Source: Prolixibacteraceae bacterium (GTDB lineage: Bacteria; Bacteroidota; Bacteroidia; Bacteroidales; Prolixibacteraceae). Taken from it: DNA of 64,000 nucleotides. Both the position numbers and the translations under genes were made by a program. Shown here one piece after another: positions 39,426 to 47,716 of the stretch (position 1 is its first letter; every line of letters starts with the position of its first letter). The notes beneath the pieces are model-generated. The model saw nothing but the letters and a program-made list of their open reading frames with translations. It was not told where the DNA came from and made no database searches. The stretch lies in contig JAQUIJ010000022.1 in assembly GCA_028683385.1 (NCBI GenBank), positions 26,275 to 90,274 on the forward strand. The letters run 5' to 3'.

Positions 39426-39780
39426 TCCATACTGCGTTTAGAGTTTTAGAAATTAGAATAGTATCGGTATAATCTTCGGTTCACTAAAGGTATGCCTGTT
39501 TTTTAGCTTCTTATTGAATTCACCGTGTCCACAATTTGTTCAGGAGGCATGAAGTGGTTGCAACTTTAAAAAGGAGATGAAATGCTACTTTCGGGCTAAG
39601 TTTGTTCAGAATTTTTAGTATTGCTAAACTTTCTCCTGAAAATTGTGTTTATAAATTCTGAAAATCAAAACGATTCAATAAAAAGACAATTTCATCTTTT
39701 TATTAGTAATCCGAATAAAAAAGTCTGTTTTATTTTCAGTTTAAAAAATAATGTTCATATTTGCATCAAATTATTCAGAA
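39426..39780. other. spacer upstream of the leucine leader
   Basis: No ORF or RNA gene is evident. A weak -7 match, CATATTTG (39756-39763), lies 18 nt before the leader ORF and is the likely leu operon promoter. Its first base differs from TAnnTTTG. Confidence 0.45.
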
Positions 39781-39852
39781 ATGACACGTTTTGCTAACAT
39801 TTCCCTTCTAGGTCTCATTCTCGGTATTCTCCTTATTTGGATGCACGATTGA
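39781..39852 (+). CDS. leucine/isoleucine-rich leader peptide
   Basis: 23-codon ORF upstream of leuA, ATG to TGA. Six codons are Leu (9, 10, 12, 14, 17, 18) and four are Ile (7, 13, 16, 19). The Leu codons are CTT, CTA, CTC, CTC, CTC and CTT, none of them the TTG, CTG or TTA that dominate neighbouring genes. It begins MTRFANI and ends IWMHD. There is no sign that the peptide itself has a function. Position, codon content and the downstream hairpins (39849-39920) make it an attenuator leader peptide. A ribosome short of charged tRNA-Leu (or Ile) would stall over codons 12-18. It is too short for normal gene finders. Confidence 0.85.
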   Translation: MTRFANISLLGLILGILLIWMHD

Positions 39853-39858
39853 GAATGG
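39816..39858 (+). promoter_or_regulatory. protector (1:2) and antiterminator segments of the leu attenuator
   Basis: CATTCTC at 39816-39822, inside Leu/Ile codons 12-14, is complementary to GAGAATG at 39851-39857, with G-U pairs extending both ends. TTGAGAATGG at 39849-39858, spanning the leader stop codon, is also perfectly complementary to CCATTCTCAA at 39891-39900, the 5' arm of the terminator. So segment 2 can pair with 1 or with 3, and 3 with 2 or 4. Confidence 0.8.
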
Positions 39859-39885
39859 TATGGGTAAAACTATAAAGAGCTTTTT

Positions 39886-39920
39886 AAAGGCCATTCTCAA
39901 AACAGGGGATGGCCTTTTTT
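39886..39920 (+). terminator. leu operon attenuator terminator (3:4)
   Basis: AAAGGCCATTCTC (39886-39898) pairs with GGGGATGGCCTTT (39905-39917) through 13 bp including two G-U pairs, loop AAAACA, then Ts. It lies 34 nt after the leader stop and 175 nt before leuA. Its 5' arm is the partner of the antiterminator segment. Confidence 0.88.
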
Positions 39921-40094
39921 CTTACAGTTCAATTATATAAGAGATCATGAATATACAAGGAAACAGATATTTAAACGCAACTAATTCGTCTCAAGCCCCC
40001 TCTCTTTCGCAGGAGAGGGGAAGCCTTCGGGCAGATGTATGTCTGGAGAATGTAGAGATAAATAGTATTGAAAAAACGTATTAAAAAAATAGTT

Positions 40095-41615
40095 ATGAGT
40101 GATAGATTGTACATTTTTGACACCACATTACGTGACGGAGAGCAAGTCCCTGGGTGTCAGTTGAACACCGTTGAGAAAATTGAGGTTGCAAGAGCTTTGG
40201 AGGAATTGGGCGTTGATGTGATTGAGGCCGGTTTCCCGATTTCAAGCCCTGGCGATTTCAATTCGGTAGTAGAAATATCAAAAGCGGTTACATGGCCAAC
40301 TATTTGTGCGCTTACCCGCGCAGTCGAAAAAGACATTGATGTTGCTGCTGAAGCGCTCAAATTTGCGAAAAAAGGGCGTATTCACACTGGTATCGGAACT
40401 TCGTTTTATCACATACATCACAAACTGAATTCCAATCAGGACGAAATTATTGAACGTGCTATTGCTGCCGTAAAATATGCCAAGCGTTACGTTGAAGATG
40501 TTGAATTTTATGCAGAGGATGCCGGCCGTACTGAAAACGAATATTTGGCCAGAGTGGTCGAGGCTGTTATCAAGGCTGGTGCAACTGTAGTGAATATCCC
40601 GGATACAACAGGTTATACCATGCCGCACGAATTTGGTGCAAAAATTAAATACCTGATCGACAATGTACCCAATGTGCACAAAGCAATTTTGTCGACACAC
40701 TGCCACAACGATTTAGGAATGGCCACGGCCAATACAATCGCCGGAATCATGAACGGAGCCCGTCAGGCTGAGGTAACCATTAACGGGATTGGTGAACGTG
40801 CAGGAAATACTTCTTTGGAAGAAGTGGTTATGATTTTAAAGAGCCGCTATGCGATTTTGAATATTGATACCAACATCAATACCAAAAATATATACAAAAC
40901 CAGCCGAATGGTTTCGAACATGATGAATATGCCTGTTCAGCCGAATAAGGCTATTGTAGGTCGCAATGCTTTTGCGCATTCCTCCGGAATTCATCAGGAT
41001 GGTGTATTGAAGAATCGCGAAAACTATGAAATTATGGACCCTGCGGATGTGGGTATCAATGAATCGAGCATTGTTTTAACTGCCCGTAGCGGACGTGCAG
41101 CGTTGAGGCATCGTCTTGAAATCATGGGTTTTGAATTAGACAAAGAGAAACTGGACGAAGTTTATGAACAATTCCTGAAATTGGCTGACAAGAAAAAAGA
41201 CGTGAAAGATGATGATGTGGCTGCTTTGTTAGGGGATGCAACTCAGAAAGAACGCCGCATTAAGCTTGATTTCTTACAGGTTGTAACCGGAAAAGGTCTG
41301 GTGCCAATTGCAAATGTACGATTAGACATTGCCGGTGAAATATTGGATGCAACAGCTTCCGGAAATGGTCCGGTTGATGCTGCGTTGAAAGCTGTAAAGA
41401 AAATAATTCACCGCAAGGTTGTTTTGGAAGAATTCCTGATTCAGGCTATAACTCATGGTAGCGACGACTTAGGTAAAGTGCACATGCAGGTAAAACACGA
41501 AGAGGGTAATTACCATGGCTTTGGCGCGAATACCGATATTATTACTGCATCTGTTGAAGCTTTTCTGGATGCCATCAATAAAATTCCGGGAGGAGTGAAG
41601 GCTAAGAAAGAATAA
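40095..41615 (+). CDS. leuA: 2-isopropylmalate synthase
   Basis: Condenses acetyl-CoA with 2-oxoisovalerate, the first committed step to leucine. The 506-residue protein has [12 protein letters not shown] (about 9-20), the metal motif [14 protein letters not shown] (about 200-213) and [14 protein letters not shown] (about 230-243) in the TIM barrel, and a C-terminal LeuA regulatory dimer domain (about 370-505) where leucine normally inhibits. ATG 40095 (MSDRLYIFD) is chosen over a TTG nine codons upstream. First structural gene after the attenuator. Confidence 0.94.
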
Positions 41616-41958
41616 TAAAGGAGACCAAAGTCAGAAGACGGGAGACGGAAAAGTCGAAGTTTACCGTCGGGGAAATGTGTCGGATTAATCCTGTTTGATC
41701 AACCGACAATCGCCAACAGGAATCCTAAAAACATATACCCTGAGAGGGTTTAATATGAATAGCCCGGAGTAAAACGACGAAGGAGTGGCACCCCGGGTAA
41801 ACGGAATTAGATAGAATAACCGTCCGCGAGATAAAGTCGGCAAAAGCGGATATTTAATTTCGGACGTAATTGTAACAACCTTTGAAAATGAGGTTTTAAA
41901 AAGAAATAAAATAAATATTTGTTTCATCTATTATGGATGAGGCTCTTAAATGAAAATA
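41616..41958. other. leuA-leuC spacer with degenerate repeat
   Basis: About 340 bases between leuA and leuC. It holds a degraded version of the composite hairpin family: ACCCTGAGAGGGT near 41738-41750, TATGAATAGCCCGG, and a matching CCCCGGG 45 nt later. No gene is visible. Confidence 0.5.
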
Positions 41959-43359
41959 ATGGAAGCAAAAACTTTATTCGACAAAATTTGGGACTCGCAT
42001 GTGGTGAAAGAGGTTGAAGGCGGCCCAAGTGTTTTATACATCGACCAGCATCTGATTCACGAAGTGACCAGCCCGGTTGCATTCCTTGGTCTGGAAAAAC
42101 GTGGATTGAAAGTGTTGCGTCCGGAGAAAACTGTTGCTACTCCCGACCACAACGTGCCAACAATCAACCAGCACCTGAGCATTAAAGACGAATTGTCGCG
42201 CAATCAGGTTGAAATGCTGAAGAAAAACTGCGCCACTCATGGTATTGTTTATCATGGACTTGGAAGCGAAGGGCATGGTGTGGTTCATATTATTGGTCCT
42301 GAAATGGGACTTACCCAACCTGGAATGACCATCGTTTGCGGCGACAGCCACACATCAACTCACGGTGCTTTTGGAGCCATTGCTTTCGGAATCGGTACCA
42401 GCGAGGTGGAAATGGTGTTTGCCAGTCAGTGCATCATGCAACCCAAACCGAAGAAAATGTTGATTTCGGTAAATGGTAAACTGAACAAAGGAGTAACCGC
42501 CAAAGACATTGCTTTATATGTAATTGCTCAGATTTCAACTTCTGGCGGAACTGGCCATTTTGTTGAATTTGCCGGATCGGCTATTGAAAGTTTATCGATG
42601 GAAGGCCGTATGACACTTTGCAACATGAGCATCGAATGTGGTGCACGTGGTGGTATGATTGCTCCTGACCAAACGACTTTTGACTATGTAAAAGGTCGCC
42701 AGTTTGCTCCGAAAGGCGAAGCCTGGGATAAAGCGCTTGCTTACTGGAAAACACTGAAATCGGATGCCGATGCCGTATTTGATTCTGTTTACGAATTTGA
42801 CGCAGCCAATATTGAACCGATGATCACTTTCGGAACCAACCCGGGAATGGGAATCGGTATTTCGAAAAATGTTCCAACCAGTGATGGTTTAGTTGGAAAT
42901 GATAAGCTGACTTACGAAAAGTCGTTGAAATATATGGGTTACAACCAGGGCGACAAAATGGTCGGTAAGCAAATCGACTATGTTTTTGTTGGAAGTTGTA
43001 CCAATGGAAGAATTGAAGATTTCAGGGCATTTGCGAATGCTGTTAAAGGCAAACATAAGGCGGATAATGTAACCGCCTGGATTGTTCCCGGATCGCATGC
43101 TGTAGAGAAACAAATTATTGCTGAAGGTCTGGTTGAAATTCTTGAAGCTGCCGGTTTTGAACTGCGTCAGCCTGGCTGCTCTGCCTGTTTGGCGATGAAC
43201 GACGATAAAATTCCGGAAGGAAAATATTCCGTTTCCACCTCGAACCGCAATTTCGAAGGCCGTCAGGGACCGGGCGCCCGCACATTGCTCGCCAGTCCGT
43301 TGACTGCCGCCGCTGCTGCAGTAACAGGAAAGATTACCGATCCGAGAGAATTCCTTTAG
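41959..43359 (+). CDS. leuC: 3-isopropylmalate dehydratase large subunit
   Basis: Isomerises 2- to 3-isopropylmalate together with LeuD; aconitase-type [4Fe-4S] enzyme. The 466-residue protein has [12 protein letters not shown] at its N-terminus, [12 protein letters not shown] (about 125-136), the cluster Cys in VGSCTNGR (about 342-349) and the Cys pair PGCSACLA (about 405-412). All three iron ligands are present. ATG 41959 is chosen to match family N-termini; ATG 41950 adds three residues and is equally possible. Confidence 0.93.
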
Positions 43360-43617: not shown

Positions 43618-44205
43618 ATGGCATACGATAAATTTACAACATTGACATCGCCGGCAGTTCCGCTGCCCATCGAAAATATTGATACTGACCAGATTATTCC
43701 GGCTCGTTTCCTGAAAGCCGTCGAACGCAAAGGTTTTGGCGATAACCTGTTCCGCGACTGGCGGTACGATAAAAGTAACCAGCCGATTGCTGATTTTCCG
43801 CTGAATCAGGCAAAGTATTCAGGCAAAATTTTGGTAGCGGGTAAAAATTTTGGAAGTGGTTCGAGCCGCGAGCACGCTGCCTGGGCAATTTACGATTATG
43901 GATTCCGCGTGGTGGTTTCCAGCTTTTTTGCCGACATTTTCCAGGGAAATGCTTTGAACAATGGCATCCTTCCGGTGGTTGTAAGCCCTGAGTTCCTGGA
44001 GAAGATATTTGCGGCTATTTCAGCCGATCAGAATGCTCAGTTTGAGGTTGATCTTCAGAATCAGAAATTTACGATTTGTGCAAGTGGCGAATCGGCTGGT
44101 TTTACGATTAATCCCTACAAAAAACATTGTTTGACTAACGGTCTCGATGATATCGATTATCTGGTCAGCATGAAAGAAGAAATTGCAGCTTTCGAAGCGA
44201 AATAA
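43618..44205 (+). CDS. leuD: 3-isopropylmalate dehydratase small subunit
   Basis: Swivel-domain partner of LeuC. The 195-residue protein has [14 protein letters not shown] (about residues 20-33), [22 protein letters not shown] (about 75-95) with the substrate-phosphate loop, and [19 protein letters not shown]. Length and motifs are canonical. It is separated from leuC by a repeat block and from the second leuA-like gene by 90 bp containing a small hairpin. Confidence 0.94.
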
Positions 44206-44228: not shown

Positions 44229-44270
44229 ACAAAGAAAACCAAGTGGACTATTTCATCGTGATTTCTTTGT
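44229..44270. repeat. ACAAAGAAA...TTTCTTTGT hairpin
   Basis: Inverted repeat between leuD and the second leuA-like gene; the sequence around it (TTTCTTTGTGTCCTTCGTGG) recurs in variant form at 57551-57695. Likely a REP-like spacer element. Confidence 0.55.
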
Positions 44271-44295: not shown

Positions 44296-45840
44296 ATGAC
44301 AGGAAAAGTAGTTGAGGTTAAAAATCAGGTGATTAGTATAATGGATACGACATTGCGGGATGGTGAACAAACATCCGGCGTGTCGTTTACTGACATGGAA
44401 AAACTGAGTGTCGCCCGTATTTTGCTGGAAGATGTGAAAGTTGACCGGATAGAAATTGCCTCTGCACGCGTTTCTGACGGTGAATTTCTTGCGGCTAAAC
44501 GGGTAATGGAATGGGCAAAAGAGAAAGGCCATTTGCCGAAAATTGAAATTTTAGGCTTTGTCGATGGCCAGATTTCGCTCGACTGGATTAATGCTGCTGG
44601 CGGAAAAATGTTGAATTTACTTTGCAAAGGTTCATACAAGCATGTCACTCAACAACTCCGGAAAACTCCCGAGCAACACATTGAAGACATTAAAAAGTCT
44701 GTTCAGTACGCCGATGAACTCGGAATCAGGGTAAATGTTTACCTCGAAGATTGGTCGAACGGGATGCGCAGTTCGAAAGATTACGTGCATTTTATGGTTG
44801 GCGAATTACTCAAACTCAACATCAACCGCATCATGTTGCCCGACACACTTGGCATTCTTGATCCGGATGAAACCTATGAGTTTTGCCGCGAAATGATTGA
44901 ATCTTTTCCTGATGGACATTTCGATTTTCATGCGCACAACGATTACGATTTGGCCTGTGCCAATGTGTTTCACGCTATCAAGGCCGGAATTCGCACGGTT
45001 CACACTACCGTAAATGGACTCGGAGAACGTGCCGGAAATGCTCCGCTTTCGAGTGTGATTGCAACCGTGAAAGATCACCTGAAAATGGAGACAAAGGTGA
45101 ATGAATCGATGCTTAATAAAATTTCCAGACTGGTCGAATCGTTCTCCGGAATCCGCATTCCAACAAATAAACCGTTGATTGGCGAATTCGTTTTCACGCA
45201 ATGTAGTGGAATTCATGCCGATGGCGATAGTAAAAATAACCTGTATTTTAACGACTTGCTTCCTGAGCGTTTTGGCCGTACTCGTGTTTATGCGCTTGGA
45301 AAAACTTCAGGGAAGGCCAATATCAAGAATAATCTGGAAGAATTGGGCATTGAACTCGACCCGGTTGCATTGAAACTGGTGACAGATCGTATCATTGAAC
45401 TGGGCGATCGCAAGGAAACCGTAACGATTGAAGATCTTCCATACATTGTTGCCGATGTGCTTAATTCAGAAGATGAAGAAGCGGCAATTAAGTTGGTGAA
45501 CTACGCATTGGCTCATGGAATGAACCTCAGGCCTTCGGCAACTGTGTGCATACAGATTAAAGGTGAAAAGTATGAAGCAAATTCTGCTGGTGATGGTATT
45601 TATGATGCTTTTATGAATGCCGTTCAGATGATATACAGTGAGTTAAATAAACCGCTGCCAAAGTTACTCGATTATTCAGTAACCATTCCTCCTGGAGGTC
45701 AAACCGACGCTTTGGTCGAAACCTTGATCACCTGGGAGTTGGGTCGTGAATTCAAAACCCGTGGACTTGATTCGGACCAGACAGCCGCAGCTATTAAGGC
45801 TACCATGCGTATGCTGAATATGATTGAATCTAAGAATTAA
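44296..45840 (+). CDS. second LeuA-family synthase (2-isopropylmalate or citramalate synthase)
   Basis: 514-residue member of the LeuA/CimA/homocitrate synthase family: [18 protein letters not shown] (about 15-32), metal motif FHAHNDYDLACAN (about 215-227), GLGERAGNAPLSSV (about 245-258), and a C-terminal dimer domain (about 390-510). It differs clearly from the other LeuA in its N-terminal barrel. Bacteroidota commonly carry two such genes in the leu cluster. This copy could be a citramalate synthase (pyruvate plus acetyl-CoA, leading to isoleucine), a leucine-insensitive LeuA, or a homocitrate-type enzyme; sequence reading does not decide. The following methyltransferase starts on its stop codon. 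Confidence 0.85.
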   Translation: MTGKVVEVKNQVISIMDTTLRDGEQTSGVSFTDMEKLSVARILLEDVKVDRIEIASARVSDGEFLAAKRVMEWAKEKGHLPKIEILGFVDGQISLDWINAAGGKMLNLLCKGSYKHVTQQLRKTPEQHIEDIKKSVQYADELGIRVNVYLEDWSNGMRSSKDYVHFMVGELLKLNINRIMLPDTLGILDPDETYEFCREMIESFPDGHFDFHAHNDYDLACANVFHAIKAGIRTVHTTVNGLGERAGNAPLSSVIATVKDHLKMETKVNESMLNKISRLVESFSGIRIPTNKPLIGEFVFTQCSGIHADGDSKNNLYFNDLLPERFGRTRVYALGKTSGKANIKNNLEELGIELDPVALKLVTDRIIELGDRKETVTIEDLPYIVADVLNSEDEEAAIKLVNYALAHGMNLRPSATVCIQIKGEKYEANSAGDGIYDAFMNAVQMIYSELNKPLPKLLDYSVTIPPGGQTDALVETLITWELGREFKTRGLDSDQTAAAIKATMRMLNMIESKN

Positions 45841-46559
45841 TGACTTATACCAAACAAAAATCATCTCCGGAAACTATTCGGAATAATTTCGATCAACAAG
45901 TTGAGCGGTTTTCAAACCTGGAAACCGGACAAACAACTGCTGTCGATTCGCCTTTGTGCATGGAATTGGTAGCTCGGTCGGCTGCATTGCTTAATCCTGA
46001 AGCAGCGAGAATCATGGATTTAGGCTGCGGCGGCGGAAATTACGCGGTAAAAGTATCGTCTTTTCTTCCGAATGTCGATTGTACTTTAGTTGATCTGAGT
46101 GCAAATATGCTTGTAAAGGCAAAGGAACGCGTTTCTGAAAATATCTCTGGCTCTGTTACAACCATTCAGGGTGATTACCGTGAAGTTGCGTTTGAAGAAA
46201 ATTCGTACGATGTGATTACTGCCGGTACCACGCTTCATCATCTTCGGGAAGCTCAGGAATGGGAATCGGTTTTTTTGAAAATCTACCGCGCGCTAAAAGT
46301 GGGTGGAACATTCTGGATCAACGACATTGTGTTAAGCGAAACCGATGAAATCAACCAAATGATGTTGGAGGGTTGGATTGATGAAATGAGAAAGCACCAC
46401 GATGAGGATGAGGTTAATATGTATCTGAATCGTTACGAATCGGAAGATACCCCGCGTACCTTGAGTTATCAACTCGATCTGATGAAACAAGTTGGATTTT
46501 CGAAAACAATAGTATTGCATAAACATTTTAATTTTGCAGCCTTTGGCGCAAGAAAATAG
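45840..46559 (+). CDS. class I SAM-dependent methyltransferase
   Basis: 239-residue methyltransferase. Motif I is MDLGCGGGNYAVKV (about residues 59-72), followed by DCTLVDLSANML (about 79-90) and ITAGTTLHHLREAQEW (about 122-137). No substrate-specific feature is recognised. Its ATG overlaps the TAA of the second LeuA gene (TAATG), so translation is coupled. It thus sits inside the leucine operon, between that gene and leuB, an odd place for a methyltransferase. A 25-bp inverted repeat separates it from leuB. Confidence 0.85.
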   Translation: MTYTKQKSSPETIRNNFDQQVERFSNLETGQTTAVDSPLCMELVARSAALLNPEAARIMDLGCGGGNYAVKVSSFLPNVDCTLVDLSANMLVKAKERVSENISGSVTTIQGDYREVAFEENSYDVITAGTTLHHLREAQEWESVFLKIYRALKVGGTFWINDIVLSETDEINQMMLEGWIDEMRKHHDEDEVNMYLNRYESEDTPRTLSYQLDLMKQVGFSKTIVLHKHFNFAAFGARK

Positions 46560-46560
46560 G

Positions 46561-46624
46561 AACCACATAGATACATAGGACACATTTTTATAATTTTCTA
46601 TGTGAACTATGTGCCTATGTGGTT
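46561..46624. repeat. CCACATAG inverted-repeat element
   Basis: Two 25-nt arms (46561-46585 and 46600-46624), AACCACATAGATACATAGG... and its reverse complement with four mismatches, around a 14-nt A/T loop. It fills the methyltransferase-leuB spacer and would form one long hairpin. Confidence 0.75.
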
Positions 46625-46651
46625 AATACAGAAATAAATAAAACCAAAAAT

Positions 46652-47716
46652 ATGAAGTTAAAATTAGCCATTCTTCCCGGCGACGGGATCGGACCTGAAA
46701 TTATCGATCAGGCCATGAAAGTTGTGAAAGTGGTTGCTGCCAAATTCAACCACGAATTGGAATATGAATTTGCATTAACCGGAGCTTGTGCCATCGATGA
46801 ATTGGGCGCACCTTATCCCGATTCTACACACGAATTGTGTATGAAAGCGGATGCTGTTTTGTTTGGCGCCATTGGCGATCCCAAATACGACAATAACCCG
46901 AAAGCGCCTGTTCGTCCGGAACAAGGTTTGCTGCTGATGCGCAAAAAACTGGGTTTGTATGCCAACATTCGTCCGGTAGTTACTTTCCCTTCGTTGCTGC
47001 ACAAATCGCCGCTTCGCCGCGAGTTGATTGAAGGCGCCGATTTCGTGGCTATCCGCGAATTGACCGGCGGTATTTATTTCGGTGAGAAAGGCCGTAAAGA
47101 CAATGGCAACACTGCTTTCGACGTGTGCGAATACACGCGCATGGAAGTGGAACGTATCCTGAAACTGGGTTACGAGTACGCCATGAAACGCAACAAAAAA
47201 CTGACTGTTGTTGACAAAGCCAATGTATTGGAAAGCTCACGTTTGTGGCGTGAAGTGGCTCAGGAAATGGCGCCATCATATCCTGAAGTGACTACCGAAT
47301 ACATGTTTGTGGATAATGCTGCCATGCAAATCATTCAGTGGCCAAAAAACTTCGATGTAATGGTTACCGAAAACATGTTCGGTGATATTTTGACTGACGA
47401 AGCTTCGGTAATTACCGGATCGCTTGGTTTGTCGCCATCTGCTTCTATCGGAATTCACACTTCGGTATTCGAACCCATTCACGGTTCGTATCCGCAGGCT
47501 GCCGGTAAAAATATTGCCAACCCGGTTGCTACCATTTTGTCGGCTGCCATGATGTTCGAATATGCATTCAACCTGATGGAAGAAGGCGCTATTATCCGCA
47601 AAGCGGTTGATGCTTCGCTCGACGCGAAAGTGGTAACTGTTGACATTTCAACAGAAAAACCATATTCTACTTCGGAAGTAGGAGATTGGATTGCCGATTG
47701 GATTAGCAAAAACTAG
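46652..47716 (+). CDS. leuB: 3-isopropylmalate dehydrogenase
   Basis: NAD-dependent oxidative decarboxylation of 3-isopropylmalate, third step of leucine synthesis. The 354-residue protein starts [17 protein letters not shown], has the substrate Arg residues in [16 protein letters not shown] (about 91-106), the Tyr/Lys pair (REL...GGIYFGEKG and [15 protein letters not shown]), the metal Asp in [12 protein letters not shown] (about 240-251), and the NAD-binding [21 protein letters not shown] 46652 is chosen over a GTG/ATG further upstream that runs into the repeat. Last gene of the cluster. Confidence 0.95.

What the first reader, a model, noticed from the sequence alone, without database searches (positions are those of the whole stretch)
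39781..39920. Complete Leu/Ile transcription attenuator upstream of leuA in a Bacteroidota genome
All parts of a classical ribosome-mediated attenuator are present. A 23-codon leader ORF has six Leu and four Ile codons, with Leu given by CTT/CTC/CTA rather than the TTG/CTG common in neighbouring genes. A protector segment inside codons 12-14 (CATTCTC, 39816-39822) can pair with GAGAATG (39851-39857). The same region extended, TTGAGAATGG (39849-39858), is perfectly complementary to CCATTCTCAA (39891-39900), the 5' arm of a 13-bp terminator followed by Ts. Stalling on Leu codons would free the second segment to form the antiterminator. Attenuators of this design are textbook in enterobacteria; I do not know of one described in this group, where promoters and translation initiation differ.
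Basis: partly seen in the sequence, partly recalled or inferred. Interest (0 to 1): 0.88.

Follow-up and report, generated by a model that had tools for sequence, protein, structure and literature searches.

The report
Leucine–isoleucine attenuator switch before leuA
In front of the leucine-making genes of a Bacteroidales bacterium lies a 23-codon leucine- and isoleucine-rich reading frame beside two mutually exclusive RNA hairpins, predicted to let a stalled ribosome switch the genes on when leucine or isoleucine runs short; the same layout stands before leuA in many relatives, Bacteroides and Prevotella among them.

Summary
It is a classical ribosome-mediated attenuator, a kind already indicated for Bacteroidota, so the design is not new. 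Comparison makes the case strong. Leu/Ile/Val-rich ORF, terminator and antiterminator occur together before leuA in 71 of 105 Bacteroidales loci (61 strictly), against 0 strict hits in 105 shuffles and 0 of 498 regions before other ORFs. In 67 loci the Leu/Ile codons stop about 15 nt before the antiterminator strand (51/67 at -15, 12/67 at -12), about where a stalled ribosome would begin to cover it. The rare codon CTA makes up 30-33% of leader Leu codons, 4% in window genes. The same genome carries His, Ile/Val/Leu, Trp and Phe/Tyr leaders before hisG, ilvD, trpE and tyrA. Extras: tandem Trp attenuators before trpE and tandem Val/Ile-rich ones before an aminotransferase gene. 38 of 105 loci lack a clear leader. 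Termination and the amino-acid response are untested.

The parts
39733..39763 (+). Promoter-like: TTTTC (39733-39737) and TATTTG (39758-39763); start of transcription predicted near 39768-39771
   Evidence: Both blocks are conserved in the 21-row alignment; likeness to the Bacteroidota TTTG / TAnnTTTG promoter is recalled, not tested
39781..39852 (+). Leader ORF MTRFANISLLGLILGILLIWMHD, stop TGA at 39850-39852
   Evidence: in-frame 3-nt gaps in 3 genus rows, variable columns 8/24, 3/24, 12/24 at codon positions 1, 2, 3, and 16 synonymous vs 9 non-synonymous variants (24% synonymous expected at random)
39799..39837 (+). Control codons, Ile7 to Ile19 (6 Leu, 4 Ile)
   Evidence: A-site stall computed for codons 8-24: P(antiterminator) 0.93 at codon 8, 0.96-0.97 at 9-19, 0.80 at 20, 0.23 at 21, 0.01 or less from 22 on; codon 7 not computed
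39813..39854 (+). Protector hairpin: 39813-39817 with 39850-39854, 39821-39829 with 39839-39848
   Evidence: MFE folds; 91.1% cells paired, 4 pairs changed on both sides
39849..39859 (+). Antiterminator strand B (contains the leader stop codon)
   Evidence: Pairs with 39890-39900; 96% of cells paired in 23 sequences, 7 of 11 pairs never vary
39886..39900 (+). Shared strand C: terminator 5' arm (39886-39898) and antiterminator 3' arm (39890-39900)
39905..39920 (+). Terminator 3' arm (39905-39917) and T run (39915-39920)
   Evidence: 97.7% of cells paired, 2 pairs changed on both sides in 8 cells
40095..41615 (+). leuA, 2-isopropylmalate synthase
   Evidence: TIGR00973 698.8 bits, cut-off 598.7
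41950..43359 (+). leuC
   Evidence: TIGR00170 655.5 bits, cut-off 560.25
43618..44205 (+). leuD
   Evidence: TIGR00171 197.5 bits, cut-off 116.25
44296..45840 (+). Citramalate-synthase-like gene (cimA-like); start codon uncertain, ORF opens at 44269
   Evidence: Piece 44299-45837: best family NF042433 CimA, 662 bits, under its cut-off of 950; activity inferred
45840..46559 (+). Methyltransferase-like gene of unknown role
   Evidence: Only sub-cut-off matches among the families shown
46619..47716 (+). leuB (ORF bounds; true start may lie inside)
   Evidence: TIGR00169 438.5 bits, cut-off 353.2

Best explanation
The region 39781-39920 is a ribosome-mediated transcription attenuator that likely ties expression of the leuA-leuC-leuD-cimA-like-leuB cluster to the supply of charged tRNA-Leu and tRNA-Ile. 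When both are plentiful, the ribosome would run to the stop codon, which lies inside antiterminator strand B, cover B, and let strand C pair with the 3' arm as a terminator. When Leu- or Ile-tRNA is short, the ribosome would stall at one of the Leu/Ile codons up to codon 19, its front edge just short of B; B would pair with C while the terminator's 3' arm is still being made, and polymerase would read on into leuA. Shown by sequence: ORF, alternative pairings, their conservation, and the codon-to-B spacing. Inferred: promoter, translation, kinetic trapping, termination, amino-acid response. The mixed Leu/Ile code fits a gene cluster whose LeuCD and LeuB would serve both leucine synthesis and, with the cimA-like enzyme, the citramalate route to isoleucine.
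For: Strict anatomy in 61/105 leuA loci, 0/105 shuffles, 0/498 regions before other ORFs; composite hits in 5 of 5 further order members. Leu/Ile codon edge near -15 nt from B in 67 loci: 51/67 at -15, 12/67 at -12, 5/67 at -9. Antiterminator energy with own strand C -14.3 versus -10.0 kcal/mol with strands C of the other sequence type, 63 loci. CTA at 30-33% of leader Leu codons versus 1-2% in leuA. Leader letters follow the pathway: His before hisG 19/20, Trp before trpE 16/20, Leu/Ile/Val before ilvD 20/21 and leuA 23/26, Phe before pheA 3/21; of the 50 other gene/letter combinations 47 are zero, the rest 1/20, 2/21 and 1/20. Val averages 4.8 per distinct ilvD leader, 0.3 per leuA leader of the same relatives and 0.85 per leuA leader of the order. 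Simulated stall: antiterminator 0.94-0.96 for transcript ends 39900-39911; ribosome at stop codon: no antiterminator, terminator 0.95 at 39917. cimA-like gene downstream of leuA on the same contig and strand in 30 of 32 genomes, 3 of them cut by a contig end.
Against: At equilibrium the full terminator wins even with the ribosome stalled (P 0.95 at 39917), so the model needs kinetic trapping. With no ribosome, the antiterminator reaches 0.75-0.92 between 39900 and 39911, so the protector is weak. The antiterminator helix shows no covariation beyond shuffles because most of its pairs are invariant. 20 of 63 loci have an antiterminator matched by more than 5 of 100 spacer shuffles. 38 of 105 leuA loci lack a leader by the criterion of 7 Leu/Ile/Val in 14 residues. 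Right before leuA in 35 loci outside the order there were only 2 weak composite hits. One row (L033) has a 1-nt insertion late in the ORF that shifts its frame, after the control codons. One Ile-rich leader (L080) belongs to a genome with no cimA-like hit. No transcript data.
Confidence: 0.9

Rival explanations
1. The leader peptide itself is the sensor: a specific nascent chain arrests the ribosome in response to free leucine or another ligand (TnaC-like, recalled), with the same hairpins downstream.
For: The peptide is nearly fixed within the genus.
Against: Across the order mainly the Leu/Ile content and its distance to B persist; rare Leu codons are enriched; sibling leaders swap Leu/Ile for His, Val, Trp or Phe/Tyr by pathway.
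Confidence: 0.04
2. The ORF is an independent small hydrophobic membrane peptide or type I toxin, and the hairpin merely its terminator.
For: 23 residues, strongly hydrophobic.
Against: Position before leuA, codon-edge rule and shared strand C in 67 loci; a related element before ilvD; His and Trp leaders of the same layout are not hydrophobic. No toxin test was run.
Confidence: 0.02
3. A ligand-binding RNA (riboswitch or T-box) senses leucine or uncharged tRNA directly and the ORF is incidental.
For: Structured 5' leader ending in a terminator.
Against: No Rfam family matches the window; in 8 loci carrying the element only two 5S rRNAs and one tRNA matched; in-frame gaps and synonymous bias in the ORF.
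Confidence: 0.02
4. The switch acts mainly on mRNA stability or leuA translation rather than on termination.
For: Terminator-like hairpins can also be processing sites (general knowledge).
Against: Leader to leuA distance varies widely among relatives, leader ORF start -171 to -357 in the genus; the window's stem is followed by six T, as the scan required of the others.
Confidence: 0.04

Closest known systems
Leu and ilv leader-peptide attenuators of enterobacteria (leuL, ilvL; recalled)
   Same: Short ORF with control codons, protector/antiterminator/terminator alternatives, rare Leu codon CTA, mixed branched-chain codons as in ilvL
   Different: No Rfam family matches the window; stop codon lies inside the antiterminator strand; Leu and Ile codons in about equal number in leuA leaders of the order (283 and 286 of 868 codons); no GGAGG-like Shine-Dalgarno sequence before the leader ATG
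Leader-peptide attenuation indicated in Flavobacterium psychrophilum (Guerin 2021, PMC9723704, section 19 read)
   Same: Same phylum, same proposed mechanism, amino-acid biosynthesis operons; structured 5' elements before pheA and hisG are named
   Different: Another order; leuA not named in the section; supplementary tables not seen
Bacteroid-trp RNA motif, RF01692 (Weinberg 2010, PMC2864571, table row seen)
   Same: Probable cis-regulatory RNA in Bacteroidetes
   Different: No match in this genome, although this genome has Trp leaders before trpE
Tandem attenuators of Salmonella mgtCBR (PMC3641672, listing and start of abstract seen)
   Same: Two short ORFs and attenuators in series, relevant to the tandem trpE and aminotransferase leaders
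   Different: Different genes; here each leader is rich in one kind of amino acid and has its own terminator

Membership tests
Ribosome-mediated transcription attenuators | Short leader ORF rich in codons of the pathway's end product | tested here: met
   6 Leu, 4 Ile of 23; conserved; pathway-specific in siblings
Ribosome-mediated transcription attenuators | Intrinsic terminator between leader and first gene | tested here: met
   sequence and conservation only, termination not measured
Ribosome-mediated transcription attenuators | Antiterminator mutually exclusive with the terminator | tested here: met
   Shared strand C
Ribosome-mediated transcription attenuators | Ribosome at control codons leaves, and at stop codon covers, the antiterminator strand | tested here: met
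   by computation with an assumed front edge 12 nt past the A-site codon's first base
Ribosome-mediated transcription attenuators | Leader ORF is translated | tested here: inconclusive
   In-frame gaps and synonymous bias support it; L033 has a late frame-shifting insertion; not measured
Ribosome-mediated transcription attenuators | Read-through rises when the cognate aminoacyl-tRNA is short | not testable with these tools
   Needs RNA data
Described Rfam leader, riboswitch and T-box families | Match over the gathering score | tested here: not met
   0 matches in the window
Bacteroid-trp RF01692 | Covariance-model match | tested here: not met
   0 in own genome

The most novel reading that the evidence does not exclude
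Bacteroidales run most of their branched-chain, histidine and aromatic amino-acid biosynthesis through a battery of ribosome-mediated attenuators, wired in series where tight control is needed (tandem Trp units before trpE, tandem Val/Ile-rich units before an aminotransferase gene). The leuA unit is a two-input Leu/Ile sensor matched to a combined leucine/citramalate-isoleucine gene cluster. If so, ribosomes and RNA polymerase must run closely coupled in a phylum said to start translation largely without Shine-Dalgarno pairing.
Probability: 0.55. Interest if true: 0.72.

Novelty: new member of a known kind. Interest (0 to 1): 0.55.

Why it matters
It gives a base-by-base testable attenuator for an order that includes common human gut bacteria. 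The sharp edge of control codons about 15 nt before strand B reads out, from comparative sequence alone, where the ribosome's front edge should lie. A whole set of such switches in one genome would argue for close coupling of transcription and translation in Bacteroidota and makes that question testable at defined sites.

Tried and rejected
Rfam scan of the window and of 8 loci with the element: nothing covers it. Bacteroid-trp model in the own genome: none. Threonine-type leaders before thrA: 0 of 8 regions. Phe leaders before pheA: 3 of 21 by the strict matrix; a looser scan listed 4 of 21, 0 of the 16 genus rows among them; in the own genome a Phe/Tyr/Trp leader MKRTSNNSFFYWFYYFCSQIGIGW stands before tyrA instead (relatives not checked). 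An order-wide covariance search with the Bacteroides/Prevotella-type model (R1, strict filters) matched 58 of 247 genomes at E <= 0.001 but not the own genome, so this sequence model under-reports the element; which gene each hit precedes was not checked, and at least one (G026:C15) lies before ilvD. Class-level and phylum-level leuA upstreams: 2 weak composite hits of 35; of 9 of these re-read with 11.5-14 kb upstream, 3 (one family) have clear leaders at the head of a long gene cluster that ends at leuA and L255 a possible one. A correlation of Ile codons with the cimA-like gene could not be tested: 30 of 32 genomes have it, one contig ends too early, one lacks it. First control set was contaminated: all 7 strict hits of 400 were leuA leaders reached from another start; it was redone.

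Rows dropped before counts: L014, L031, L032 (near-duplicates) and L016, L028 (partial leuA) from the 105; one search used 26 leuA rows and left out L027 besides L014, L016 and L028, and L027 is a miss, so 23/27 is the fairer figure; one search also left out L192-L195 (ilvD second copies or pieces), L240 and L243 (pheA pieces) and L281 (weak trpE hit). Type-2 alignment A2 holds 25 of 44 rows, chosen for likeness. Many rows are close relatives, so the counts are not independent events.

Full report
What is there. ORF 39781-39852 codes MTRFANISLLGLILGILLIWMHD; strand B 39849-39859 overlaps its stop codon; strand C 39886-39900 can pair with B or with the terminator's 3' arm 39905-39917; six T follow at 39915-39920. 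leuA starts at 40095 and is followed by leuC, leuD, a citramalate-synthase-like gene, a methyltransferase-like gene and leuB. The window lies in a 5.9-Mb genome; the closest named record listed by LeuA is Prolixibacteraceae bacterium UBA10471.

More than chance. I scanned 500 nt before leuA (less where the contig ends) in 105 loci (28 from whole genomes and 80 named Bacteroidales contigs, less 3 near-duplicates) for a Leu/Ile/Val-rich ORF of 8-45 codons, a terminator after it, and a duplex between the spacer and the terminator's 5' arm. 71 of 105 have all three and 61 pass strict thresholds; of 105 dinucleotide shuffles 2 have all three and none is strict. Of 500 regions before other ORFs 24 pass loosely and 2 strictly, both being leuA upstream regions themselves, so 0 of 498. 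At least two of the 71 (L029, L059) look like chance. Five of five further order members also carry the element (L111-L115). Record titles of loci with it include Prolixibacteraceae, Bacteroides, Phocaeicola, Prevotella, Parabacteroides, Dysgonomonas, Tannerella, Barnesiella, Labilibaculum and Ancylomarina. 38 of 105 lack a leader with at least 7 Leu/Ile/Val in 14 residues; two of these, L040 and L075, keep the typical terminator and a weaker leader.

Two sequence types, one geometry. In the window's family strand B mostly reads TGAGRATGG and sits on the stop codon; in Bacteroides and Prevotella it reads GGAAGTGA and sits, in most rows, inside the reading frame. In both, Leu/Ile codons fill the stretch before B and stop at about the same distance: by codon start relative to B in 3-nt bins, 58/67 at -21, 51/67 at -18, 51/67 at -15, 12/67 at -12, 5/67 at -9. 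A ribosome with such a codon in the A site covers about 12 nt beyond the codon's first base (recalled; PMC4833913, passages seen, gives up to 12 nt beyond a stop codon), so the codons end where a stall would begin to hide B. Folding the window's RNA behind that edge gives the same answer: stall at codons 9-19 leaves P(antiterminator) 0.96-0.97, codon 20 0.80, codon 21 0.23, codons 22 to stop 0.01 or less. hisG leaders, with His triplets, show a similar edge near -18 to -15; ilvD leaders run closer to B (-12 to -9), and trpE duplexes were not cleanly placed.

Pair counts. On 23 sequences the terminator keeps 97.7% of cells paired with 2 pairs changed on both sides. The antiterminator keeps 96%, with 7 of 11 pairs invariant, so it carries no covariation evidence of its own; partner swaps supply it: -14.3 kcal/mol with its own strand C, -10.0 with strands C of the other type (63 loci, own better than every cross-type partner in 34). 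Shuffling the spacer gives a median z of -2.5, with 43 of 63 loci beaten by at most 5 of 100 shuffles. The terminator uses G-U pairs at two places where the antiterminator uses mostly Watson-Crick pairs, which may tune the contest.

Coding evidence. Three genus rows have 3-nt in-frame gaps in the ORF (two of them at the same place); three others have a 1-nt gap just after it. Against this, L033, outside the genus, has a 1-nt insertion late in the ORF, after the control codons, which shifts the frame and lengthens the peptide. Variable columns are 8, 3 and 12 of 24 at codon positions 1, 2 and 3; 16 synonymous and 9 non-synonymous variants against a random synonymous share of 24%. CTA is 30% and 33% of leader Leu codons in the two types, 1-2% in the leuA genes and 3.6% in 40 window ORFs.

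Specificity. The strict scan before five genes in the own genome and relatives gives His for hisG 19/20, Leu/Ile/Val for ilvD 20/21 and leuA 23/26 (23/27 with a dropped miss), Trp for trpE 16/20, Phe for pheA 3/21; of the other 50 combinations only three are non-zero (1/20, 2/21, 1/20). Val makes up 99 of 312 control codons of ilvD leaders and is not among the eight commonest residues there in leuA leaders. A model of the window's element finds leuA (E 1.9e-28) and ilvD (E 5e-8) in the own genome, so these two are probably related by descent. Of nine weaker hits up to E = 1, two are a Phe/Tyr/Trp leader before tyrA and a Val/Ile-rich leader before an aminotransferase gene; four (L286-L289) look like chance or bare terminators; three were not read.

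Mechanism and its limits. With the ribosome stalled, B pairs with C as soon as C is out (0.94 at transcript end 39900, 0.96 to 39911); once the terminator is complete it wins at equilibrium (0.95-0.96 at 39917) in each of the three states computed. The switch therefore depends on order and speed of folding, as I recall for known attenuators, and this was not modelled kinetically. Without any ribosome the antiterminator is also favoured for a while (0.75-0.92), so a poorly translated leader might read through.

Why Leu and Ile together. LeuCD and LeuB serve leucine synthesis and, with citramalate synthase, the citramalate route to isoleucine (pathway knowledge). A cimA-like gene lies downstream of leuA on the same contig and strand in 30 of 32 order members with leaders, three of them cut by a contig end. 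This fits a two-input sensor but is not a test of it: Ancylomarina (L080) has an Ile-rich leader and no cimA-like hit.

Prior work. Vitreschak et al. 2004 is not held; I recall its abstract naming Bacteroidetes/Chlorobi among groups with candidate attenuators. Lopatovskaya et al. 2010 was seen only as a reference. The kind is therefore known, and the presence of such switches in the phylum is already indicated; I found no description of the leuA element, its order-wide geometry or tandem trp units in searches, which cover open-licence papers only.

Verdict. A conserved Leu/Ile attenuator on comparative evidence; new member of a known kind; the wider set and the tandem units are the parts most worth following.

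Noticed in passing
L262 (own genome, G000:C23), reverse strand, -350 to -78 before the trpE match: Two Trp attenuators in series: MIQNTNTIWLPWWGLLSKK with its terminator, then MKNIWWWHRNFSQYRGRK with its terminator. Tandem in 13 of 20 trpE loci (12 of 15 in the genus, where 2 of the other 3 are cut contigs; 1 of 5 elsewhere, L277).
   Followed up: partly
L284 and L290 (own genome, G000:C28), and L291: Two Val/Ile-rich leaders, each with its own terminator, in series before a class I/II aminotransferase gene; the same in L291, a genus relative with a 75% identical gene; only 3 of 25 genomes searched have the gene at E <= 1e-100.
   Followed up: partly
L285 (own genome, G000:C41): Leader MKRTSNNSFFYWFYYFCSQIGIGW and terminator before tyrA (prephenate dehydrogenase), while pheA in 16 genus rows has no such leader.
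   Followed up: partly
L161 (hisG) and L177 (ilvD), own genome: His-triplet leader MNKAIKHYGHHHGTLSEGRQ and Ile/Val/Leu leader MKNISIISLVIISVVVLLRAE, each with terminator and antiterminator.
   Followed up: yes
window 39924-40094: The stretch between attenuator and leuA varies widely in length among genus members and holds an inverted C-rich/G-rich piece (about 39997-40022) that looks like a small inserted repeat.
   Followed up: no
A2 alignment; Prevotella leaders such as L071, L086, L087: The Ile run ends in a conserved CGA (Arg) codon before the last Leu (IIIIRL), where Bacteroides leaders such as L081 have CTA (Leu); role unknown.
   Followed up: no
L048, L078 and other type-2 terminators: Several Bacteroides/Prevotella-type terminators keep one U-U mismatch in the shared arm; perhaps it tunes the contest with strand B.
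   Followed up: no
L089 and L097 (Salinivirgaceae): Leu-rich short ORFs ending LLLSLSLSLRLRRR and LLLLLSLRLRRR before leuA with no matching strong terminator found.
   Followed up: no
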